From Longimicrobium sp. (GTDB taxonomy: Bacteria > Gemmatimonadota > Gemmatimonadetes > Longimicrobiales > Longimicrobiaceae): a stretch of 64,000 bases of DNA. Location: positions 16,043 to 80,042 of the forward strand of contig DASVTZ010000214.1 of NCBI GenBank assembly GCA_036387335.1, given 5' to 3'. Of this stretch, positions 50,598 to 60,803 are shown piece after piece (the stretch's first letter is position 1; the number at the start of each line of letters is the position of its first letter). The notes under the pieces were generated by a model that worked only from the letters and a program-made list of their open reading frames with translations, did no database searches and was not told the origin of the DNA. The position numbers and the translations under genes were made by a program.

Positions 50598-51377
50598 TCA
50601 CGCCGCCGCCCGGACCTCGCCCAGCCGCACGCGCAGCAGCAGGTCGTGCAGCGCGGCCCGCGTCGCCGGCGAAGCCGTCTCCGGCAGGCGGCTGAGCTCG
50701 GCGGCATCGGCGAGGGCGCGGCACAGGCGGAGGAACTCCACACGGTGGAATACCGCGTCCGCATCGCCGAGTACCGACTGCTCAGCACCGGCCGTCTTGC
50801 GGTGGATCAGCTCGTCGATGTACGGCAGCCTCATTTCCCTGTTGCACGCGTAAAGGGAGGCGACCACATCGCCGCTCCGCATCATCCGGATGCCGGTGAG
50901 GAGTACGCGGTACACGTAGAGGAGGGGCTTCACGCGGCGCGGCTCCTCCTTCTCCCACAGCCGCCACTGGTTGTGCGCGAAGCCCAGGTAGTGCCGCACG
51001 CAGCGGCGGGTGATGCAGCCGCGCGCGATCTCCTTGAGCTCCTCGTGCTCGGGCGTGGTGTGCACCACGAGCGGCGAGTAGAGCTGCTCCAGCACGTAGC
51101 CGTTGTCGCGCAGCAGGAGCGCAAAGAACTTGCGCGCGTCGTGGGTCACCAGGTCCACCTCCGCGCCGCCGCGGACGTGGCTGCGCTTCACCGTGTCCTC
51201 GCCCTCCTCCAGCCCCGCCACGGCGGCCAGCGGCAGCACGTGGCACCCGCGCAGATCCCAGTCCGAATCGCCGGACGGGAAGCCGTAGAGGTGCGCGCCG
51301 CTCACCGTGGCGAACAGGAGGGGATAGGGGTGCGCGGCGGTCTCGGCGCGCAGGGGTTCGTTCTTTATCATCAGCAT
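50598..51377 (-). CDS. Pol-beta-superfamily nucleotidyltransferase (YcgL/COG3541-like), second copy
   Basis: 259 aa. The nucleotidyltransferase core is complete: SGAHLYGFPSGDSDWDLRG (the h-G-S/A-x-x-x-G ... D-x-D motif of metal-binding aspartates, near residue 27) and the third acidic strand AEVDLVTHDARKFFALLL. The following helices (YVLEQLYSPLVVHT ... ITRRCVRHYLGFAHNQWRLWEKEEPRRVKPLLYVYRVLLTGI) are characteristic of COG3541. Members of this group are recurrent neighbours of RtcB and may add or remove nucleotides at RNA ends. Last gene of the operon; its 3' end is duplicated at 47161. A 339-bp repeat-filled gap separates it from its paralogue. Confidence 0.88.
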   Translation of the reverse strand: MLMIKNEPLRAETAAHPYPLLFATVSGAHLYGFPSGDSDWDLRGCHVLPLAAVAGLEEGEDTVKRSHVRGGAEVDLVTHDARKFFALLLRDNGYVLEQLYSPLVVHTTPEHEELKEIARGCITRRCVRHYLGFAHNQWRLWEKEEPRRVKPLLYVYRVLLTGIRMMRSGDVVASLYACNREMRLPYIDELIHRKTAGAEQSVLGDADAVFHRVEFLRLCRALADAAELSRLPETASPATRAALHDLLLRVRLGEVRAAA

Positions 51378-51716: not shown

Positions 51717-52655
51717 CTAACGCACTTCCGTCCCCACCGCACTGCGCCGGGCACGGATCAGGTATCCGTTCGCCCACGCGTAGTCGGGGCGATCCGGGAG
51801 GCGCGTGGATGCGAGCGCGGCGTCGAACTCGCGGTGGAGCGCGAGCCTCCATTCGTTCACTTCGTCCCACGGCGCCGCGCCCGATTTGATGCCCAGGAGC
51901 GCGGCCCGGTTCTCCTCCACCCGAACCGGGACGTGGCCGTCGCGCAGGGCCGTGATGCCGCTGATCAGCAGGCGCACCAGGTGCATGGCGTGCTTCCACC
52001 TGGGCGCGCCCGTGTTGCGGACGTCCTGCTCCAGCTTGCGGAACTGCGACATCACGTAGCCGTTGTACGTCTGGTAGACGATCTTCGACAGGAAGCGCCC
52101 CCGCTCGCGCAGCAGCTCCTCCGCCAGCGGCGCCGCGTGCTCGACGCGCGGGGAGTAGAGCACTTCCAGGATGTTGGGGTTCGCCTTGAGCGCGAGCCCC
52201 AGGAACTTCCCCACCTCCCAGTAGCACTCCTCCGTCGCCACGTTCTCCAGCTGCTCCGGCACGCCGTAAAGCGACCAGTGAAGCTCGGCCGGGGGCAGGT
52301 ACACGCCGCGCCGGTCCACGTCCGACTCCTCGTCGTCCAGCCCGTACGCGCGCGAGCCCACCACCACGCGCAGCATCACGTGCTCGTCTAGCGAGTGGTC
52401 GCGCAGCACGCCGCCCAGCTCCGCCAGCGTCTCCGCCTGCAGGTGCTTGCGGATGGTGAGCTCCGTCCTGGGAAGCGACAGCTCCGTCCCGTCCACCAGG
52501 CGCACGCGGTAGGCGTGCGTGTGGTCCGTGGGCGCGCCCACCACCTTGCCCACGGAGCCCGCCGGCGCCAGCGGCCGGCCCGCGCCCGTGGCCGCCGCCC
52601 GCCGCAGCACCACTTGCGTGCCCACGGGAAGGATCAGGTTCAGGTTGTACGTCAT
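51717..52655 (-). CDS. Pol-beta-superfamily nucleotidyltransferase, first copy
   Basis: 312 aa. A ~95-residue N-terminal extension with an SH3-like strand pattern (PVGTQVVLRRAAATGAGRPLAPAGSVGKVVG ... YRVRLVDGTELSLPRTEL) precedes the nucleotidyltransferase core: RVVVGSRAYGLDDEESDVDRRGVYLPP with the GS and DxD-type acids intact. Downstream helices (ECYWEVGKFLGLALKANPNILEVLYSPRVEHAAPLAEELL, YVMSQFRKLEQDV) match the paralogue at 50598, so the two arose by duplication. The N-terminal domain could bind RNA. Located between RtcB/unknown protein and the MITE-like insert, on the same strand as the whole operon. Confidence 0.88.
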   Translation of the reverse strand: MTYNLNLILPVGTQVVLRRAAATGAGRPLAPAGSVGKVVGAPTDHTHAYRVRLVDGTELSLPRTELTIRKHLQAETLAELGGVLRDHSLDEHVMLRVVVGSRAYGLDDEESDVDRRGVYLPPAELHWSLYGVPEQLENVATEECYWEVGKFLGLALKANPNILEVLYSPRVEHAAPLAEELLRERGRFLSKIVYQTYNGYVMSQFRKLEQDVRNTGAPRWKHAMHLVRLLISGITALRDGHVPVRVEENRAALLGIKSGAAPWDEVNEWRLALHREFDAALASTRLPDRPDYAWANGYLIRARRSAVGTEVR

Positions 52656-53566: not shown

Positions 53567-56218
53567 TCAGTCCTTGTACGGATCCACCTCCCCCGCGCCG
53601 GCCATCGCGACGATCAGCGGGCGCAGCGTGTGCCGCACCTGGATCGTGTCGCCCTGCGCCGCGAGCACCCTGGGAAGGCGGCGGTACGCCTGCGGCGCCT
53701 CGTCCAGCCCGCCGCCGCGCAGAATCACCCCGCGCTTCCCCAGCCACTGCTGCAGCATCTCCTGAGAGATGCGGCCGGGGCTCAGCACCTTGCCGCGCCG
53801 GTTGCGCTTCCCCGCCGCGGCCGTGCGGCTCATCACCCGCCCCGCTCCGTGCACGGTGGAGAAGAGGGACTCCCGCTGCGCCAGCGCCGTCTCCTCGTCC
53901 GGCGGCGCGGCGTTCCCCTCCAGGATCACCGCGTCGTCGCCCATCGAGCCGCCCACGAAGCCCTTCTGCCCCGGGAACGCCGGCGTGGCGCCCTTGCGGA
54001 TCACCACGTACTCAGTAGGCTCTCCCACCATAGAAACGTGGGTTTCCTTCCATCCGAAATTATGATGGTTGTGCACTAATTCCAGCTCCTTCCCGCCAAG
54101 GAGCGACACCACCTTGCGCGCCACCCACTCGCGCCCGGCATACGCGTACTCGCCGGCGAGCTGCATGAGTTGCCAGTAGTCGTGCCCCAGCGGCTGGTTG
54201 ATGTCCAGAAGCACCTCCTTCTCCGCGGCCCGCTCGCCCCACATCCCGCCCTGCGACAGTGACAGGTAGGCGCTGGCGATGGTGTGCCCCAACCCGCGGC
54301 TCCCGAAGTGCACCCCCACCCACACCGCTCCGCTCTCGTCCGCGAAGACATCCACGTAATGGTTGCCGGAGCCAACCGTTCCTAGCTGCCGACGCGCCTT
54401 GTCCTGAAGCGTCTCGCGGTAGCCGCCGGTGTTGGGCACCGCGTACCACGCCGGGTCCAGGAAGAGCGGGTGGTCGACGGGAGCGTCGTCCGCGTTGTTC
54501 TTTCGCCCGATCCCGAACGAGATCGTCGACGCGATCTCGTCCGCGAGGTTGTTGGCCAGGTTGTTCTGCGCCAGCCGGTGCGGATTCCGCTCGATCTCCT
54601 CCAGCGACACGTTGCGCGTGATGTCCTCCACGCGTAAGTCCGTGCGAATGGCCGCGTTGCCGCAGTTGTGCACCACGACGCCGGATGCGAGGAAGCAGTG
54701 CGCCGGATCGCCCGTCACCACGTCGTAGACGAGCGAAGTTCCGCCCGGCTCCACGCGGGACACCGGCACCCAGCAGACCTCACCGTCCGCCTGCGGATCC
54801 AGCGCCTCGCCGGGCAAGCGGCGCGACCGGCCGCGGTCGTCGTAGAACGAGTGGTACGCGAAGCCGGGCGACACGCCGAACCGCTCCGACACGTCCGCGA
54901 CCGCCGTCCGCCACGGAACGCCCTGGCCGCGCAGCGCACGCGCCTCCTCCTTGGCCGCGTCCCGATTCGCGGCGTACGCCAGGCCCTGCAGCGCGACACT
55001 CGCCGCCGTTGCCGCGGCTACGCGCTTTTCCACGGAGCGGCAGAACCCCACGTCGCGCATGAACCGGAGCTGCTCGGCCTGGCCGCCCAGGATCTGGAGC
55101 ACGGAGATCACCCGATCCCCACGCGCCGGCCCGCTGGGCGCCACCGACACCCCGAAATCCAGCGACCGCAGGAGACCCGCGATGAAGTCGATGGCGTGCG
55201 TGTGCCGGCCGGACTGCTTCAACTCCAGGTTCGGCACTGTGCCGGTGCGATGCACTCGTGGCGTCATCATCTCCGCGCTCGCGAAGGCGGAGAGGAAGTG
55301 CCCACGGGCCCACGCGGGCATCCGCATCAGCCACGGCATCGGCTCCGCGGCCCAGTCCTTCTTCCCGACTGGCGATCCGAGGCCCGCGAACAGCGCGTGG
55401 AGCGCGGTGGAGCCGACGTACATGTTGATCTCCTCGCGCCACCCTTCCTTGCGACGGCGCCGATGCTCGCGAGGCTCGAAGCCGAGGCGCCGGAAGTCGG
55501 CGCGCAGGTCCTCCGCGTCCTCGTCGTTGAAGACGTAGAGCGAGACCCGCTTTCCATCCTTGCTGAGGTGCCCGTCGCCGCTCGCGTAGCCGAGCAGCCG
55601 GAGGAGCGCGGGGAGCCGGTCGTCCGTGGCGCGGAGCGGAAGGAGCCCGCGCTCCTCCAGCTCAGCACGTGAGCGCTCGTTGGGAACCTCGAACGTGACG
55701 TCGCACGCGGGCTCCTCATACGGGAGCCCCACGTAGGGCGTGCAGGCGATCGAGTCGTCCGGGCCGAGCTGGTCCGCACGCTTCCACCCCGCACGGGTCA
55801 GGATCTCGTGGTCGGGCGTCGCGCGGATCTCTCGGCCGTTCCCCAGCGTGATCGCCAGCACGTCGCGCTCCCCGCGCGGCACCGCGCCGAAGTGGGGCGA
55901 GACGGGGCGCACCGAGGCTCCGTCCCAGCACACGACGGCGTCCGCGTCAGTGACCTCCTCGATCGGCTTCGTGAAGCCGTCCGCGGTGATTACCGGCGTT
56001 CCGGCGGCGAGGCACGCGATGTCGAAGCCCACGCCCACCACCGACACCTTGTCGCGGTACGCGGCCACCCCGCCGATCGGCATCGTGAAGCCCACGTGAC
56101 CGTCCGCCAGGAGCGCCGCGCGCTCGGCACGCCCCGCCACGTCTGTGAGCTGGCGGATGGTCCCCTCCTCGTGCTCGCCGAACATGACGGCGTTGGTCCC
56201 TACCTTCTTCGTCAGCAT
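53567..56218 (-). CDS. rtcB: RNA-splicing ligase RtcB interrupted by a 450-aa intein
   Basis: 883-aa precursor. Exteins are residues 1-68 and 519-883 (433 aa after splicing). The Mn2+/GTP site is complete in the exteins: VGFDIA/CGNAAIRTDL (Asp and Cys ligands), SGNHYVDVF, HFGSRGLGH, HNHHNFGWKETH and the guanylylated His in STVHGAGRVMSR. RtcB joins 2',3'-cyclic phosphate ends to 5'-OH ends in RNA. The intein sits directly before the catalytic Cys, which also serves as the obligatory +1 nucleophile of splicing, so no active ligase exists before excision. Sits downstream of the Ro60 and 105-aa genes; a dispersed repeat lies in its leader. No archease (RtcB activator) gene is nearby. Confidence 0.95.
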   Translation of the reverse strand: MLTKKVGTNAVMFGEHEEGTIRQLTDVAGRAERAALLADGHVGFTMPIGGVAAYRDKVSVVGVGFDIACLAAGTPVITADGFTKPIEEVTDADAVVCWDGASVRPVSPHFGAVPRGERDVLAITLGNGREIRATPDHEILTRAGWKRADQLGPDDSIACTPYVGLPYEEPACDVTFEVPNERSRAELEERGLLPLRATDDRLPALLRLLGYASGDGHLSKDGKRVSLYVFNDEDAEDLRADFRRLGFEPREHRRRRKEGWREEINMYVGSTALHALFAGLGSPVGKKDWAAEPMPWLMRMPAWARGHFLSAFASAEMMTPRVHRTGTVPNLELKQSGRHTHAIDFIAGLLRSLDFGVSVAPSGPARGDRVISVLQILGGQAEQLRFMRDVGFCRSVEKRVAAATAASVALQGLAYAANRDAAKEEARALRGQGVPWRTAVADVSERFGVSPGFAYHSFYDDRGRSRRLPGEALDPQADGEVCWVPVSRVEPGGTSLVYDVVTGDPAHCFLASGVVVHNCGNAAIRTDLRVEDITRNVSLEEIERNPHRLAQNNLANNLADEIASTISFGIGRKNNADDAPVDHPLFLDPAWYAVPNTGGYRETLQDKARRQLGTVGSGNHYVDVFADESGAVWVGVHFGSRGLGHTIASAYLSLSQGGMWGERAAEKEVLLDINQPLGHDYWQLMQLAGEYAYAGREWVARKVVSLLGGKELELVHNHHNFGWKETHVSMVGEPTEYVVIRKGATPAFPGQKGFVGGSMGDDAVILEGNAAPPDEETALAQRESLFSTVHGAGRVMSRTAAAGKRNRRGKVLSPGRISQEMLQQWLGKRGVILRGGGLDEAPQAYRRLPRVLAAQGDTIQVRHTLRPLIVAMAGAGEVDPYKD
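54665..56014 (-). mobile_element. intein with LAGLIDADG homing endonuclease in RtcB
   Basis: Residues 69-518 of the precursor. N-terminal splicing block CLAAGTPVITADG (Cys1), block B RATPDHEILTRAG with the TxxH motif, a dodecapeptide (DOD/LAGLIDADG) endonuclease with two candidate motifs (LLRLLGYASGDGHL and HFLSAFASAEM), block F VYDVVTGDPAHCFLASG and C-terminal VVVHN followed by Cys+1. All splicing residues are intact. In the second endonuclease motif Glu replaces the usual Asp. A size of 450 aa is typical of a full intein. Archaeal RtcB (Pyrococcus) carries an intein at the same cysteine. Confidence 0.93.
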
Positions 56219-56347: not shown

Positions 56348-56665
56348 CTAGTCGTCCTCGTCCCACCGCCGGTCGGCCTTCTGCTCGCGGCGCAGGGCGC
56401 GGTTGAAGGTGCGGTCGCCGGCGCGCTGCAGCTCGGTGGACTCGCAGATGGCATCCACCGCGCGCGCGAGCACCCAGGCGCGAGCACCGTGCCGGTCCAC
56501 GAACTTGAGCCAGCGCGGCCGCCAGAACCGTCCCAGCTTGCGCCCCAGCTCCCGCGCCGTCTCCGGCGACACGTAGTAGCTGTCGAACCGGGTCGTGACC
56601 ACGAAGTAGTCCCCCGCGGGGAGCTCCTCCTCCGGTCTCTCCTGTCTTTCTCGCGTATGGTTCAT
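56348..56665 (-). CDS. unknown 105-aa protein between Ro60 and RtcB genes
   Basis: Small, charged protein: an N-terminal beta part (GDYFVVTTRFDSYYVSPETARELGRKLGRFWRPRWLKFVDRHGARAWVLARAVDAICESTEL) and a basic/acidic helical tail (RAGDRTFNRALRREQKADRRWDEDD). Aromatic and Arg-rich composition (YYVS, FWRPRW) would suit RNA binding. No family recognised. 83 bp downstream of the Ro60 stop on the same strand; a dispersed repeat separates it from rtcB. Confidence 0.65.
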   Translation of the reverse strand: MNHTRERQERPEEELPAGDYFVVTTRFDSYYVSPETARELGRKLGRFWRPRWLKFVDRHGARAWVLARAVDAICESTELQRAGDRTFNRALRREQKADRRWDEDD

Positions 56666-56748: not shown

Positions 56749-58392
56749 CTAGCGCGCGAAGTCCGCGATCAGCTGCGGCGTGGCGGCGTCGAAGCCCACC
56801 ACGTCCAGCATTCCGGCATCCTCGGGGTCCGCGATGGTGAACCCGTTGGACGCCATCCCCACGACCACCAGCTTCGCGGGGATCCCCGTGCGCTCCCGGT
56901 ACCGGCGGAGCGCCTGCGACGGGTGGATGTCACCCGCCCACGTCTCGTTGTCCGTGTAGACCACGAACAGGTCGACGTCCCACCTCCGGTCCGCCGCCTC
57001 CAGCATGGGAAGCGCGCAGTCCGTCCCCCCGAAGCTGAGGGAAGACACCTGCCGGACCACGTCGTCCAGCCGCTGCCGGGGCGAGATCGCGAGCGGGGTG
57101 ATCCCGCTGGGGAAGCCGTCGTGCATCGAGCGCGACCGCCCCGCCGTGAAAGCGGTGAAGAAGTGCCGCGGCTCGGTAGCCGCCGTCACCAGCGCCATCG
57201 CGGCCGACGCCTCGCGGCAGCTCAGCCCCTCCAGCCCGTGCACGTTCGCCGTCATGGAGCCGGACACGTCCAGCGCCAGCATCACGCGGCGCCCCGAGGG
57301 CTCCACCCCCGCGAAGGCCAGGTAGAAGGCCGCGTCCAGCGCGTCCACCACCTGCGCCACCGGCGTCCACGTCCCCTTTCCGCGCACCCCGCGCCCGGAC
57401 GAGTACGTCCGCAGCGCGGAGAGGACCTGCACCGGGTGCACCCGCGCCCTGCGCAGCGCCTCGCCGTCCGCCAGCCGCGCGGCGACGGCGGCGGAGGCAT
57501 CGCTCCCGGGCGCCAGGACGCCCACGCGGGTGAGCGTCGCCAGGTTGCGGACCAGCGCGGTGAGCGGCATCTCCTCCAGGAGCGCCTCCCACACCACCGC
57601 GTGCTGAAGGAGCGGCGTGGGCACCATCTCCCGCGTGAGCCGCGCATCGCGGACGATGGCCGCGGCGCGCGCGGGGTCGATCTCCGCGTCATCGTGCAGC
57701 GCGTCGACGGCGCGGACCTGCGCCAGCGCGCCGGAGGGCTGCCCCTCCTCCAGCGCCCCGCCGGTGACGGTGCGGCGGAATAGCGCCCGCTGCTCGTCGC
57801 TGCGGGGGACCGGGTGCGCCAGCCGCAGGGCGTCGCGGTGCGACCACCCGTCGCGCTGGGGGTACTTCAGGAGCTGGTGCGCCAGGTCGCGCTCGGGCCG
57901 GCCGGTGTACCACGCCGCCACCGCGCGCCGCACCCCGCGCCCCCACCCGCGGAACCCGCCCACGAACTGGAGGAAGTGGAAGAGGTGCGTCCCCGTCCGC
58001 GCCACCCGCGGCAGCGCCTCCAGCGCGACGGCCCGCGTGACCGCGTCCCCCATCCCCGCCGCCATCGCCAGGGCGAAGAGCGCGGGGTCGTTCTTCGGCG
58101 CGCGCCCGCCGGCGCTCACCTCCACGATGCGCCGCACCACGCGGGGCCCATCCTCCGCGATGCACTCGGCCACGGCGCCGGCGTTGTCGACGGTGAGCTC
58201 GCGCTCGCCGACGTAGTAGGTCCCGCCCTCGGTTCCCAGCACGAGGAACCGGTCGAGCCGGCTCCAGCGGTCCAGGGCCCAGGCGTACCCGCCGGCCGAG
58301 TTGGGCACCTGCGCCGATCCGGGGATCGGCTCGGACTGCCGCGTGACCAGCGCCCGGAGGCGGGTGGCCACGTAACGCGTGAAGTCCAGCAT
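56749..58392 (-). CDS. rsr: Ro60/Rsr homologue (TROVE domain plus vWA domain)
   Basis: 547 aa; the start at 58392 has a perfect AGGAGG ribosome-binding site. Residues ~25-340 are the TROVE HEAT-repeat ring: NSAGGYAWALDRWSRLDRFLVLGTEGGTYYVGEREL, VSAGGRAPKNDPALFALAMAAG, VARTGTHLFHFLQFVGGFRGWGRGVRRAVAAWY and QLLKYPQRDGWSHRDALRLAHPVP are near-diagnostic. Residues ~365-547 are a von Willebrand A domain with intact MIDAS (LDVSGSM, GGTDCALPM, VVYTDNETW). Ro60 rings bind misfolded RNA ends in the central hole and Y RNA on the outer rim. The tRNA/Y-like RNA array lies 170 bp upstream and rtcB downstream, so it is the core of an RNA surveillance and repair operon. Confidence 0.96.
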   Translation of the reverse strand: MLDFTRYVATRLRALVTRQSEPIPGSAQVPNSAGGYAWALDRWSRLDRFLVLGTEGGTYYVGERELTVDNAGAVAECIAEDGPRVVRRIVEVSAGGRAPKNDPALFALAMAAGMGDAVTRAVALEALPRVARTGTHLFHFLQFVGGFRGWGRGVRRAVAAWYTGRPERDLAHQLLKYPQRDGWSHRDALRLAHPVPRSDEQRALFRRTVTGGALEEGQPSGALAQVRAVDALHDDAEIDPARAAAIVRDARLTREMVPTPLLQHAVVWEALLEEMPLTALVRNLATLTRVGVLAPGSDASAAVAARLADGEALRRARVHPVQVLSALRTYSSGRGVRGKGTWTPVAQVVDALDAAFYLAFAGVEPSGRRVMLALDVSGSMTANVHGLEGLSCREASAAMALVTAATEPRHFFTAFTAGRSRSMHDGFPSGITPLAISPRQRLDDVVRQVSSLSFGGTDCALPMLEAADRRWDVDLFVVYTDNETWAGDIHPSQALRRYRERTGIPAKLVVVGMASNGFTIADPEDAGMLDVVGFDAATPQLIADFAR

Positions 58393-58560
58393 GTTCGCCT
58401 CCTTTCTCGTTGGAGGTGGATGCGCCGTGCGCCCGGGTGGCGCTTCGGCGGTGGCCCGCGGCGCGGACGAATGTCTCCGTTCGGTTGAGTGGACCGGAGT
58501 CCACCGCCTGGCATGCGGTAATCGAACGGATGCGGCCCACGCCGCGGGCCTGTCTGATGC

Positions 58561-58674
58561 TGCCGGGATGCAGTTACGGGATTCGAACCCTGGCCGACCA
58601 GGTAACCCTCGTCCATCGGCCCATCCGGGGACGGGCAAGGGAGCGGAAGAGGGAATGACCGCTGCACCCCGGCA
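58561..58674 (-). ncRNA. Y-like RNA 1, aberrant tRNA-like RNA nearest the Ro60 gene
   Basis: Closing stem of 13 bp (TGCCGGGGTGCAG with CTGCATCCCGGCA, one G-U pair). It contains a T-loop sequence (GGGTTCGAATCCC) and, 5' of it, the shared motif GGGCCGATGGACGAGGG. The motif's CGAT and helix elements are preceded by a 6-bp hairpin (GCCCGT/ATGGGC) and answered by CCCTC...TCC with an internal loop, the same architecture as in the three tRNA-like RNAs upstream. No D arm and only a 3-bp T stem can be drawn, so it is not a decodable tRNA. A short hairpin CCTGG-TCGG-CCAGG lies just before the T loop. Confidence 0.65.
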
Positions 58675-58808
58675 TCATGCGCGAGCACTCGTGAGGCGCG
58701 GACGAAGTGCGCCGATCGGCCCCGGTTCGCATGTCCGGGTCCTTGAGAGGGTCGGCGATAACCGACACGGCATCGGCCCGCGTCCCACGGGTGTTCGTTC
58801 CGTCAAAA
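58675..58808 (-). ncRNA. structured spacer with two more GGGCCGAT motifs
   Basis: Minus strand carries GGGCCGAT at 58779-58772 and 58722-58715. The first is preceded by a CCCG/CGGG hairpin and followed by GTCGG-TTATCG-CCGAC. The second is preceded by a CCCGG/CCGGG hairpin and enclosed by GCCGA/TCGGC. No acceptor or T arm can be drawn. It could be one or two further Y-like RNAs or decayed copies. Confidence 0.4.
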
Positions 58809-58937
58809 TGGGCCTGGCGGGATTCGAACCCGCGACCTCTTCCGTTTCCAAGGGATAACCCTTGCACATCGGCCCGGCCGAAGCCGGACGAGTGGCGTGA
58901 AGGGCATAAGTGCTCTACCAGGCTGAGCTACAGGCCC
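58809..58937 (-). ncRNA. chimeric tRNA/Y-like RNA 2
   Basis: Acceptor stem GGGCCTG/CAGGCCC (7 bp, perfect), D arm GCTC/GAGC with loop AGCCTGGTA, T arm GCGGG-TTCGAAT-CCCGC and a 5-nt variable loop AGGTC are canonical. Between A26 and the variable loop there are 72 nt instead of 17. The inserted part folds as CCCTT-CAC / GTG-(bulged C)-AAGGG, an asymmetric loop (GCCACTC against CGAT) and a GTCCGG/CCGGGC hairpin, and contains GGGCCGATGTGCAAGGG. The remaining anticodon-stem pairing (CTTAT/GGAAG) is poor. Discriminator A; no CCA encoded. Standard tRNA finders would call a tRNA with an intron here. Confidence 0.75.
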
Positions 58938-58999
58938 ACCGCTGCGCCGTCCGTACCACTCCCCGCGCGCCCCGCAGCCGGGCACGTGAGGCCTTCCTA

Positions 59000-59125
59000 T
59001 GGAGACCCGGCGGGACTCGAACCCGCAACCTCCGAGGCCGTTGAGCCTCGGCCGCCGGCCCGCGCGTGGCGGGCAAAGTGTTGGCGAGGCAGCTCGGTGC
59101 TCTGTCCCGTTGAGCTACGGGCTCC
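59000..59125 (-). ncRNA. chimeric tRNA/Y-like RNA 3 (tRNA-Arg-like frame)
   Basis: Acceptor GGAGCCCG/CGGGTCTCC with one bulged T, D arm GCTC-AACGGGACA-GAGC, T arm GCGGG-TTCGAGT-CCCGC, anticodon stem CCGAG/CTCGG and variable loop AGGTT are canonical. The anticodon loop is 56 nt instead of 7; if its ends are joined after U33 the loop would be CTACGGC (anticodon ACG). The insert holds GCCTC-GCC / GGC-(bulged C)-GAGGC, an asymmetric loop and the GCCCGC/GCGGGC hairpin, with the motif GGGCCGGCGGCCGAGGC. Confidence 0.75.
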
Positions 59126-59188
59126 ATCCACTGCGCCGTCTTTGCCGCCCTCCGCGCCGCCCCGCAGCCGGGCGGCGTGGAACCTGGA

Positions 59189-59319
59189 TGGGAAGCCCGG
59201 TGGGAATCGAACCCACGACCTCCGGATTAGCGATGAACCTCCACCTGCGGCCCGCGAGCGGACGAGGAATCGGCGGAAGTAAGAGTCCGGCGCTCCGGCC
59301 ACTGAGCTACAGACTTCCC
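59189..59319 (-). ncRNA. chimeric tRNA/Y-like RNA 4 (tRNA-Ser-like anticodon frame)
   Basis: Stem GGGAAGTCTG/CGGGCTTCCC (10 bp with wobbles; 7 bp plus a templated CCA-like end is the alternative), D arm GCTC-AGTGGCCG-GAGC, T arm GTGGG-TTCGATT-CCCAC, perfect anticodon stem CCGGA/TCCGG and variable loop AGGTC. The anticodon loop is 59 nt; joining its ends after U33 gives CTGCTAA (anticodon GCU). A real tRNA-Ser would have a long variable arm, which is absent, so decoding is unlikely. The insert carries GGGCCGCAGGTGGAGGT, with helix, asymmetric loop and GTCCGC/GCGGGC hairpin as in the other copies. Confidence 0.75.
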
Positions 59320-59325
59320 GGCAGG

Positions 59326-59399
59326 GGTGGCCAGTGGGGCTCGAACCCACAACCCTCGGGCCCACGACCCGATGCTCCGCCAGTTGAGCTATGGCCACC
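59326..59399 (-). tRNA. tRNA-His(GTG)-like gene with C33, first RNA of the array
   Basis: 74 nt, no insert. Acceptor GGTGGCC/GGCCACC, D arm GCTC/GAGC, anticodon stem TCGGG/CCCGA, loop TCGTGGG with anticodon GTG, T arm GTGGG-TTCGAGC-CCCAC, discriminator C73 as required for His. Two oddities: position 33 is C instead of the near-invariant U, and base -1 is T instead of G. It may be a divergent tRNA-His or, given its neighbours, a tRNA mimic without the Y insert. Confidence 0.75.
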
Positions 59400-59621: not shown

Positions 59622-59951
59622 CTACGCGCCTCTGGCGCCGCCCCCGGGACCTCCCGCGCTGCAATGTTCGCGACCGAATCGATCGCTTCCTTCCGCCTTC
59701 GTCATTTTCAGACCCCGCGACCCGCCGCGAATCGCGTACGGATGCACCTCGCCCCCCGCGCGATGGGCACACGCCGCCCACGCGAAACCCCGCGGCTGCG
59801 CCGGGGCCGGATTGCTGGTGAGGTGGAGGAGCTGGGTCATCGAAGGCTTTCTTCCTTTTCCGTATCGTTCGCGCCAGACGTGCGCACTCAGGTTGCTGAA
59901 AACAAAAATCGCGCCGCCGATGTCCCTGCCGAGCTGCGCCATGCGCTGCAT
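59622..59951 (-). CDS. possible 109-aa leader ORF, no known family
   Basis: ATG at 59951 with GGGAG upstream, about 70 nt after the predicted transcription start. The product (starting MQRMAQLGRDIGGAIFVFSN) resembles no family I know and becomes low-complexity Gly/Ala at its end. It may be a real small protein of the operon or a chance frame in a 5' leader. The stretch 59400-60050 otherwise holds only the two hairpins listed and the promoter. Confidence 0.25.
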   Translation of the reverse strand: MQRMAQLGRDIGGAIFVFSNLSAHVWRERYGKGRKPSMTQLLHLTSNPAPAQPRGFAWAACAHRAGGEVHPYAIRGGSRGLKMTKAEGSDRFGREHCSAGGPGGGARGA

Positions 59952-60026
59952 CGTCGGCTCCCTGCCCGCCGCGACGGCGAGCTCGGAGCCAGGGTGACAT
60001 CGGGACGCGACTCCCGTGAGACGCAG

Positions 60027-60055
60027 AGTGTAAACGGGCACTCGCGGGTTGTCAA
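60027..60055 (-). promoter_or_regulatory. near-consensus sigma-70 promoter driving the tRNA/Ro60/RtcB operon
   Basis: On the minus strand TTGACA (60055-60050) is followed after exactly 17 bp by TACACT (60032-60027). This is the best sigma-70-type promoter seen in the window and points towards the RNA array, with no stronger hairpin with a T-run until 50552. The -35 overlaps the end of the pseudogene upstream. No sigma-54 (GG-N10-GC) site, as found before E. coli rtcBA, was seen. Confidence 0.7.
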
Positions 60056-60803
60056 CCCCCTTCATCGCCATTCCGAACCTGTTCTCGTACACGGTGCGCG
60101 CATTCGCGAATGGCGATGTCCAGCGTCTCCTGGATGCTTTCCTCCCGAACCGGATGAAGCAGCCGAAGGGGGAACATCGAGACGACGGGGACGCGCAGAC
60201 CCCGCTCGAGAGCCTGGCCGACGAACCCGGGGCTCAATCCTGGATCGATCTCCAGCACGTCGTCGACGAGCGCCGCGATGCGCCGCCGCACGGTCACCGG
60301 GTCCTGCCCGCCCTCGGGATGCCGGGCGATCGCATCCAGATCGATGAAGTCGCGGGGCTCGAAACGGTCGCAGATCGCGTGCAGCTTTCCCGCGCCGAGA
60401 TCGCGGAACGAGGCGATCCGCGGGCCTTCCTCGCTCGGTTCCAGCGGTGCAAGCCGAAACGGTGAACTGCGCGCGACGTCCAGCCGAACGGAGCCTGCGT
60501 TCTCACCCCGCGAGTGCACGACGAAGCGAGCGAAGCCCTGCGTGGCCGGCCCGCCGGGTCGCAGGTCGAGGCCGGCGGCGCGCAGCGGTTCACGCAGCGC
60601 AGCCCCGAAGTCGCGGGCATCCATGTGGGGGTCGCCAAGAAGTCGAGATCCTCGGACTCCCGGTGCTTCAGGTGGTACGCCGCGAGCGCGGTTCCGCCCT
60701 CCAGCCGAAGACCGATTTCGCCATACGCCTCTTCGGTCTGCGCGACGACCCGCATCATCTTGAGGTGGAGATCGCTTACGACGCGACGATCCGCCTTCAG
60801 CAC
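60052..60803 (-). pseudogene. AbiEii/AbiGii-like nucleotidyltransferase, frameshifted
   Basis: The N-terminal part is encoded in one frame from 60803 (VVAQTEEAYGEIGLRLEGGTALAAYHLKHRESEDLDFL, the GG-T-A-L ... DLDF nucleotidyltransferase signature of AbiEii). It then continues in another frame (from GDPHMDARDFGAALREPLRAAGL at about 60636 to 60052), with the usual C-terminal helices (FRDLGAGKLHAICDRFEPRDFIDLDAIA). One missing base near 60636-60642 explains the break. Overlaps the DUF6922-like gene upstream. Toxin-type nucleotidyltransferase of an AbiE-like module, now inactive unless the frameshift is programmed or a sequencing error. Confidence 0.8.

What the first reader, a model, noticed from the sequence alone, without database searches (positions are those of the whole stretch)
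58561..59399. Array of chimeric RNAs: tRNA bodies with a Y-RNA-like stem in place of the anticodon loop
Three consecutive minus-strand RNAs (59189-59319, 59000-59125, 58809-58937) have canonical acceptor, D, T and variable segments, but the 7-nt anticodon loop is 56-62 nt long. A fourth, aberrant RNA (58561-58674) has the same insert. All four inserts share an ungapped 17-nt block, GGGCCGNNGKNNRAGGN, and fold alike: outer helix with a bulged base, 3-bp helix, asymmetric loop (7-8 nt against CGAT/CGGC/CGCA) and a 6-bp hairpin. The next gene is Ro60. Known Y RNAs bind Ro60 through a stem with helix, CGA-containing asymmetric loop and helix (as I recall, human Y1 starts with GGCUGGUCCGAAGGUAGUGAG), and bacterial YrlA RNAs mimic tRNA. 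Here the same modules appear joined in a different topology: the Y stem is circularly permuted onto the tRNA anticodon arm. I know of no description of such RNAs.
Basis: partly seen in the sequence, partly recalled or inferred. Interest (0 to 1): 0.95.

Follow-up and report, generated by a model that had tools for sequence, protein, structure and literature searches.

The report
Ro60 RNAs in true tRNA order
Beside the gene for the RNA-binding protein Ro60, this bacterium and bacteria of several other phyla carry tRNA-shaped RNA genes whose anticodon loop is replaced by a hairpin predicted to bind Ro60; the parts match those of the known bacterial Y RNA YrlA but are joined in the order of a real tRNA, so one molecular tool exists in two circularly permuted forms, likely serving tRNA repair or quality control.

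Summary
Three minus-strand units (59191-59317, 59001-59125, 58808-58938) score as tRNAs in Rfam but hold a 44-48-nt hairpin in the anticodon arm whose strands match the Ro60-binding stem of bacterial Y RNAs. Rfam's YrlA model matches across neighbouring units, from one insert to the next, because YrlA is a circular permutation of such a unit. A model of 21 units from 11 genomes, run on 395 genomes of the phylum, lists 24 chimeras (96-125 bits) in 14 genomes, then ordinary tRNAs (67 bits or less). Twelve of the 14 hold Ro60, one a likely Ro60 remnant, one ends at a contig edge. The same order recurs beside Ro60 in Myxococcota, Ca. Brocadia, Armatimonadota, viral contigs and, by eye, Picosynechococcus plasmids; 27 of 28 base pairs show compensatory change. 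Actinomycetota and Methylobacteriaceae loci with a callable order have YrlA order; the order changed at least five times on a quick Ro60 tree. Ordinary tRNAs exist elsewhere and no tRNA-splicing endonuclease was found, so introns are unlikely. The fourth RNA is a D-armless type; two plain Y hairpins precede Ro60. Expression, binding and function are untested.

The parts
59191..59317 (-). Type I chimera a: tRNA body (acceptor with G-1:C73, D arm, T arm) with Y hairpin in the anticodon arm
   Evidence: Rfam tRNA 51.7 bits; R1 104.3 bits
59237..59280 (-). Y hairpin of chimera a
59001..59125 (-). Type I chimera b
   Evidence: Rfam tRNA 40.7 bits; R1 107.9 bits
59045..59090 (-). Y hairpin of chimera b
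58808..58938 (-). Type I chimera c
   Evidence: Rfam tRNA 52.1 bits; R1 108.8 bits
58858..58905 (-). Y hairpin of chimera c
58561..58674 (-).
   Evidence: R1 31.1 bits; sequence; relatives by eye
58684..58793 (-). plain Y-type hairpin RNA, strands in ordinary Y order
   Evidence: fold -51.8 kcal/mol for 58682-58794; similar hairpins in G251, G180, G311
58453..58550 (-). second plain Y-type hairpin RNA
   Evidence: fold -61.9 kcal/mol for 58445-58551
59324..59398 (-). tRNA-His(GTG)-like gene at the head of the array, C33 instead of U33; a second, higher-scoring tRNA-His lies elsewhere in the genome
56749..58392 (-). Ro60 (TROVE + vWA), 547 aa
   Evidence: PDB relatives 2nvo, 1yvp
56348..56665 (-). 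conserved 105-aa protein after Ro60, no Pfam match
53567..56218 (-). RtcB RNA ligase with intein
51717..52655 (-). RlaP (RNA repair pathway DNA polymerase beta family)
50598..51377 (-). second RlaP
60027..60055 (-). sigma-70-like promoter pattern TTGACA-17-TACACT upstream of the array
   Evidence: such a pattern starts 38-40 nt before the leader in all 12 loci that have the leader
59899..60015 (-). leader GGGAGTCGCGTCCCGATG, predicted to pair with a terminator-like stem ending in a T run

Best explanation
The array encodes RNAs with a tRNA body whose anticodon loop is replaced by a Y-RNA stem predicted to bind the Ro60 encoded next to them; they are the unpermuted counterparts of the bacterial Y RNA YrlA. 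Shown: the parts, their order, their covariation, their tie to Ro60, and the presence of matching parts in permuted order in other bacteria. Inferred: the array is transcribed, the acceptor ends would be trimmed like those of a tRNA, Ro60 would hold the inserted stem, and the free tRNA-like elbow and acceptor would dock the Ro60 particle to tRNA-handling enzymes (RtcB and RlaP of the same locus, or PNPase as in the known Ro60/Y RNA/PNPase machine), steering damaged tRNAs to repair or decay. Also inferred: tandem arrays with interchangeable acceptor stems give a route from one order to the other, since cutting in the Y loops instead of at the acceptor ends would turn such an array into YrlA RNAs.
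For: tRNA order: acceptor strands pair within each unit, 57 of 57 counted units with at least 6 of 7 pairs, all 8 acceptor pairs with compensatory change. Y identity: Rfam YrlA matches that begin and end in successive inserts (37.7 and 36.9 bits, E 2.7e-6 and 4.6e-6, cut-off 69; others); the insert's 3' strand profile is found before the T arm in 59 of 82 YrlA-order units at 1% or less of shuffles, mean 9.6 bits against 0.4 at the wrong place; the shorter 5' strand in 30 of 82 at 5% or less. Tie to Ro60: 12 of the 14 genomes with a listed chimera among 395 hold Ro60; G080 keeps a match to Ro60 residues 1-37 and, weakly, 536-545 and no TROVE match; in G361 the units lie at a contig end. Ro60 residues aligned to Xenopus K170, R174 and H187 are kept (their role in Y RNA binding is recalled). 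Spread: 14 of 80 genome loci and 13 of 80 viral loci with Ro60 (and by eye). Ordinary tRNAs elsewhere. RtcB follows Ro60 in 11 of 21 Gemmatimonadota loci held, several of them truncated.
Against: No expression or binding data. 3 of 15 Ro60 genomes of the phylum lack a listed chimera (G071 and G170 with type II RNAs by eye, G229 with neither seen). In the window the acceptor strands of a with b and of b with c also pair 7 of 7, wobbles counted, and b's own stem only 6 of 7, so processing of this one array as YrlA is not excluded by pairing. Single-sequence folds give the cloverleaf for c but not for a and b. In one search only 8 candidates per genome were scored, with strict filters, and the list was cut; the tRNA search of the own genome did not list unit c. 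Helix 2 was placed for best pairing. RtcB gave no match in chimera loci L073, L075 and L076 despite 7.5-9.3 kb of downstream DNA, RlaP matched in only L068, L080 and L083 of the Gemmatimonadota loci, and of the 164 other loci searched 4 gave an RtcB match.
Confidence: 0.8

Rival explanations
1. Intron-containing tRNA genes: the insert is cut out by an endonuclease and the halves are joined by RtcB of the same locus.
For: RtcB lies in the operon; inserts sit at the anticodon loop; ARAGORN offers anticodons after splicing.
Against: No PF01974 splicing endonuclease match in the genome, which is 95.65% complete, while 4 of 14 control genomes, all archaea, ring. 53 ordinary tRNAs in 20 fetched regions cover all amino acids but Ile and include Lys CTT/TTT, Arg, Gly GCC and His. 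The insert keeps a Ro60-type motif and covaries, and goes with Ro60 rather than RtcB: L126, L171 and L177 hold chimeras and gave no RtcB match in the stretch held.
Confidence: 0.05
2. A tandem array of ordinary YrlA RNAs read in the wrong register: real ends lie in the Y loops and the acceptor is closed by the 62-65-nt spacers.
For: Rfam YrlA matches across units; cross-unit acceptor pairing 7 of 7 for a-b and b-c, 7 against 6 own pairs for b; some spacers elsewhere are short (0, 7, 7, 12 nt).
Against: In L076 the only T arm that my pattern found in 4.9 kb before Ro60 belongs to its one unit, so this register does not exist there; 27 of 40 loci had one unit above the call's threshold, though weaker second units exist in some. 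The Y loop is 0-8 nt in most units (16-51 in four) while spacers reach 419 nt; YrlA acceptor loops seen in Rfam alignments are a few nt.
Confidence: 0.08
3. Decoys for anticodon nucleases: tRNA-shaped baits without an anticodon, held by Ro60, spare the real tRNAs.
For: The cutting site is replaced; the locus holds RNA repair genes; array tRNAs often lack U33 (53 of 234 in 13 Myxococcota Ro60 loci, 0 of 53 and 0 of 29 in two housekeeping sets). A competitive-inhibitor role is raised for YrlA by Hughes et al. 2020 (PMC7790460, passages read).
Against: No nuclease was looked for in these hosts; a bait lacking the anticodon loop may not be recognised; in the Polyangium array only 1 of 26 tRNAs lacks U33. 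This rival concerns function and can be true together with the best explanation.
Confidence: 0.15
4. Decaying tRNA genes hit by a hairpin element, without function.
For: In G361 one unit has lost its insert and part of the D arm (sequence).
Against: Compensatory changes in 27 of 28 pairs across phyla point to selection.
Confidence: 0.02

Closest known systems
YrlA, bacterial Y RNA (Rfam RF02553)
   Same: Ro60-type stem, D arm, T arm and acceptor-like stem; gene next to Ro60
   Different: YrlA runs Y strand - T arm - closed acceptor - D arm - Y strand (Rfam model); here acceptor - D arm - closed Y hairpin - T arm - acceptor. That bacterial Y RNA 6CU1 is a circular permutation of tRNA is stated in PMC11472068 (passages read).
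Vertebrate and Deinococcus-type Y RNAs
   Same: lower stem with helix, bulged base and loop at the Ro60 site (description of the vertebrate stem in PMC4726728, passages read)
   Different: no tRNA body like this one; the plain Y hairpins at 58684-58793 and 58453-58550 are closer to these
tRNA (RF00005)
   Same: acceptor, D and T arms, above gathering score
   Different: no 7-nt anticodon loop; an eighth acceptor pair in most units
rsr-yrlBA-rtcBA RNA repair operon of Salmonella (PMC7790460, passages read)
   Same: Ro60, Y RNA and RtcB together
   Different: RlaP genes and unpermuted RNAs here; RtcA and RtcR were not searched for
Permuted tRNA genes of algae and archaea (recalled)
   Same: circular permutation of a tRNA gene
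   Different: there the product is a normal decoding tRNA

Membership tests
YrlA (RF02553) | Ro60-binding Y stem motif | tested here: met
   (sequence and structure; binding untested)
YrlA (RF02553) | tRNA-like D, T and acceptor module | tested here: met
YrlA (RF02553) | order Y - T arm - closed acceptor - D arm - Y within one RNA | tested here: not met
   for the window's array alone pairing does not decide
YrlA (RF02553) | Rfam gathering score 69 | tested here: not met
   best 37.7 bits, across two units; YrlA-order RNAs of a Gordonia phage and Nonomuraea also scored under 69 (42.2, 51.0)
YrlA (RF02553) | bound by Rsr/Ro60 in cells | not testable with these tools
   needs pull-down
tRNA | acceptor, D and T arms | tested here: met
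tRNA | 7-nt anticodon loop with U33 | tested here: not met
tRNA | aminoacylation and decoding | not testable with these tools
   isoacceptors present elsewhere
tRNA with spliced intron | splicing endonuclease in the genome | tested here: not met
   no PF01974 match in a 95.65% complete genome, controls ring
tRNA with spliced intron | RtcB ligase present | tested here: met
Ro60 (Rsr) | TROVE and vWA domains, alignment to solved Ro60 | tested here: met
RNA repair operon | RtcB next to Ro60 | tested here: met
   RtcB and two RlaP
RNA repair operon | RtcA and the regulator RtcR | not tested
   no search made for them

The most novel reading that the evidence does not exclude
Ro60, unpermuted tRNA-Y chimeras and arrays of extra tRNAs form one system against tRNA damage: the extra tRNAs, often with C33 in place of U33, stand in for cut tRNAs, while the chimeras carry Ro60 to broken ones; and YrlA arose repeatedly from such arrays by a shift of the processing register, a natural case of circular permutation of an RNA caught with its intermediates.
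Probability: 0.25. Interest if true: 0.92.

Novelty: new variant of a known kind. Interest (0 to 1): 0.8.

Why it matters
It shows one Ro60-linked tRNA mimic in two circularly permuted gene orders across several phyla, with tandem arrays that could bridge them, so the origin of YrlA becomes testable. The known tRNA mimicry of YrlA could be a derived form of an RNA that keeps the whole tRNA frame, with a free acceptor end that YrlA lacks. A laboratory cyanobacterium (Picosynechococcus PCC 7002) carries candidate genes of this kind next to its Ro60, which makes expression and binding tests simple.

Tried and rejected
Introns: rejected as the leading reading. YrlA register: weighed and kept as a minor rival. 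Order calls by regular expression alone were unsafe: L206 and L214 type I calls were dropped by eye (no Y motif; two neighbouring tRNAs), L135's type I call is an overlap of two YrlA units, L208 and L237 YrlA calls come from short spacers between type I units; L236 was added by its R1 score. R1 scores of about 27-67 bits in Actinomycetota and Methylobacteriaceae are overlaps of tandem YrlA or ordinary tRNAs and were not counted; 65-72 bits is a grey zone, and the Picosynechococcus units (51-58 bits) rest on reading the R1 alignments of L126 by eye. MAFFT misplaced helix 2 in A1 (81% paired); it was re-derived by choosing the best-pairing place, so that step is not independent. Three pattern matches that joined ordinary tRNAs were dropped and one unit was added by hand before A1. 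An anticodon-like CTGNTAA loop is in 7 of 58 units: left unexplained. Literature: the main bacterial Y RNA papers are not held, so prior description in them cannot be excluded; the listings of searches showed no paper on tRNA-order Y RNAs, and passages of five papers were read.

Full report
What is there. The window's genome is likely a Longimicrobium-like member of the Gemmatimonadota: its Ro60 is 97% identical to a protein that a source names TROVE domain-containing protein of Longimicrobium sp.. On the minus strand between a tRNA-His gene (59324-59398) and Ro60 (56749-58392) lie three units that Rfam scores as tRNAs above its cut-off (40.7, 51.7, 52.1 bits against 29) although 53-66 nt are left out of the anticodon region. 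Each has an acceptor stem (7, 6 and 7 of 7 pairs in a, b, c) with one more possible pair at -1:73, a D arm, a T arm and, in place of the anticodon loop, a hairpin of 44-48 nt (59237-59280, 59045-59090, 58858-58905). The fourth RNA (58561-58674) has the hairpin and a T arm, no D arm, and a 13-bp closing stem. Next to it are two plain hairpins whose strands carry the same motif in ordinary Y RNA order (58684-58793, 58453-58550).

What the insert is. Rfam's YrlA model gives sub-threshold matches that begin in the 3' half of one insert, run through the T arm and the spacer, take the next unit's D arm and end in the 5' half of the next insert (37.7 and 36.9 bits, E 2.7e-6 and 4.6e-6, cut-off 69). 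This is what a circular permutation of the unit would give. YrlA-order RNAs, seen by Rfam in a Gordonia phage, Nonomuraea and, in part, a mycobacteriophage and Bosea and by pattern in many Actinomycetota, carry the insert's 3' strand before the T arm: 59 of 82 such units at 1% or less of shuffles, mean 9.6 bits against 0.4 in the wrong place. The other, 11-nt strand is weaker: 30 of 82 at 5% or less.

Covariation. Twenty-one units from 11 genomes give 95.1% paired cells for 28 pairs, 65 doubly changed cells against 23.4 in shuffles, and 38-53% paired when partners are slid. The model R1 built from them, used on 41 chosen sources, gave 58 matches at E 1e-12 or better; on that model-fitted alignment 96.5% of cells pair and 27 of 28 pairs have compensatory change, 315 doubly changed cells against 82.2. 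Helix 2 is the weakest at 90.6%.

Tie to Ro60. Ro60 is in 15 of 395 genomes of the phylum at E 1e-10. R1 in the same number lists 24 matches of 96-125 bits in 14 genomes, then drops to 66.7 bits and below, ordinary tRNAs of about 75 nt (only 8 candidates per genome were scored, with strict filters, and the list is cut). Twelve of the 14 hold Ro60; in G243 the unit and Ro60 are on two contigs, each near a contig end. G361's units are at a contig end and no TROVE was found in it. G080 has no TROVE match but, behind its units, a match to Ro60 residues 1-37 (E 4e-9) and a weak one to 536-545 (E 2.8), which looks like an internal deletion. Three Ro60 genomes have no listed chimera: G071 and G170 have type II RNAs by eye, G229 none seen.

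Beyond the phylum. Of 380 genome relatives of Ro60 and 207 viral ones the best 80 each were kept. After the order classifier, R1 scores and inspection of the calls that disagreed, I count type I in 14 of 80 genome loci (11 Myxococcota, those titled Deltaproteobacteria included, as the tree's taxonomy labels them; 1 Ca. Brocadia, 1 Armatimonadota, 1 Gemmatimonadota), YrlA order in 42 and neither in 24; and type I in 13 of 80 viral loci (two of them, L245 and L248, with equal scores and positions), YrlA order in 29, neither in 38. Picosynechococcus plasmids, PCC 7002 included, carry two candidate units each of 51-58 bits with the same order, read by eye in L126, and a third with the hairpin turned the other way. 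On a quick tree of 112 Ro60 proteins with a called order (114 chosen, 2 not extracted) the order needs 11 changes, at least 5 forced by well-supported branches, against 31.9 in shuffles: it is inherited but has switched several times.

Rivals. A tRNA search of the own genome lists 57 matches, three of them in the window, unit c not among them; ARAGORN reads 53 tRNAs in the 20 regions fetched, all amino acids but Ile, so the array is hardly needed for decoding. No splicing endonuclease was found. Acceptor strands pair within the unit in 57 of 57 cases with at least 6 of 7 pairs; with the next unit the mean is 5.5 of 7 over 17 neighbouring pairs, and in the window both neighbour pairs reach 7 of 7 with wobbles. 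So for this array alone the register is not proved by pairing. For the family it is: in L076 the one T arm found in 4.9 kb before Ro60 is that of its one unit, and 27 of 40 loci had one unit above the threshold, though weaker second units exist in some. Single-sequence folding shows the expected cloverleaf for unit c only.

Mechanism. Ro60 and its RNA are likely an adaptor: the stem holds Ro60, the tRNA-like part is free. The neighbours RtcB and two RlaP genes point to RNA repair; RtcB follows Ro60 in 11 of 21 Gemmatimonadota loci held, but not in L073, L075 or L076, and RlaP was matched in three. For YrlA a review describes tethering of PNPase and modification by tRNA enzymes (PMC8394870, passages read), and Hughes et al. 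raise a competitive inhibitor of an anticodon nuclease (PMC7790460, passages read). PMC7824862 (passages read) speaks of TROVE proteins as a platform for RNA repair with a tRNA-like partner. In 13 Myxococcota loci Ro60 sits among 4-26 tRNA genes; 53 of their 234 tRNAs have no U33, nearly all C33, against 0 of 53 in this genome's and 0 of 29 in Polyangium's other tRNAs; in the Polyangium array itself it is 1 of 26.

Verdict. A new variant of a known kind: YrlA-type, Ro60-linked tRNA mimics in native tRNA order. Whether an earlier paper describes them cannot be settled here, because the main bacterial Y RNA papers are not in the library.

Noticed in passing
window 59899-60055: Sigma-70-like promoter pattern and an 18-nt leader GGGAGTCGCGTCCCGATG identical in 12 of 14 Gemmatimonadota Ro60 loci with enough upstream DNA (not G075, G159); in the window it is predicted to pair with a terminator-like stem. 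A CGCGACYCCC stretch, complementary or nearly so to the leader, lies further down in 12 of the 14 (not G311, G379b). Looks like an attenuator or riboregulator of the array.
   Followed up: partly
L177, L181, L185, L188, L191, L194, L195, L197, L202, L203, L206, L207, L208: Ro60 of Myxococcota lies among 4-26 tRNA genes in the stretch held; Polyangium sp. 6x1 has 71 tRNA matches, 27 on the array contig.
   Followed up: partly
same loci and window 59324-59398: tRNAs of Ro60 loci often lack U33: 53 of 234 in Myxococcota, 7 of 17 at Gemmatimonadota Ro60 loci (all tRNA-His), 0 of 82 in two housekeeping sets.
   Followed up: partly
L075, about 400 to 270 nt before Ro60: An RNA with Y strand, T arm, closed hairpin and second Y strand, no D arm: YrlA order at a locus that also has a type I unit.
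   Followed up: partly
L126:5788-5912, L289:3788-3912: A tRNA body with the Y hairpin inserted in the opposite sense.
   Followed up: no
window 58561-58674 and relatives in G180, G032, G346, G159, G170, G071: D-armless type II RNAs with a long closing stem, a T arm and the Y insert, compared by eye.
   Followed up: partly
L120:10137-10287: Ro60 of G080 seems reduced to its two ends by an internal deletion while the RNAs remain.
   Followed up: partly
window 53567-56218: RtcB carries an intein; matches over the full intein-bearing length also in L068, L077, L078, L189.
   Followed up: no
window 56348-56665: A 105-aa protein without Pfam match follows Ro60 in 11 Gemmatimonadota loci, this one included.
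   Followed up: no
7 of 58 type I units, e.g. L075:3583-3709: A CTGNTAA stretch like an anticodon loop with U33 sits 3' of the Y hairpin.
   Followed up: partly
window 60294-60803: ORF with a short AbiEii match (26.8 bits) upstream of the array.
   Followed up: no
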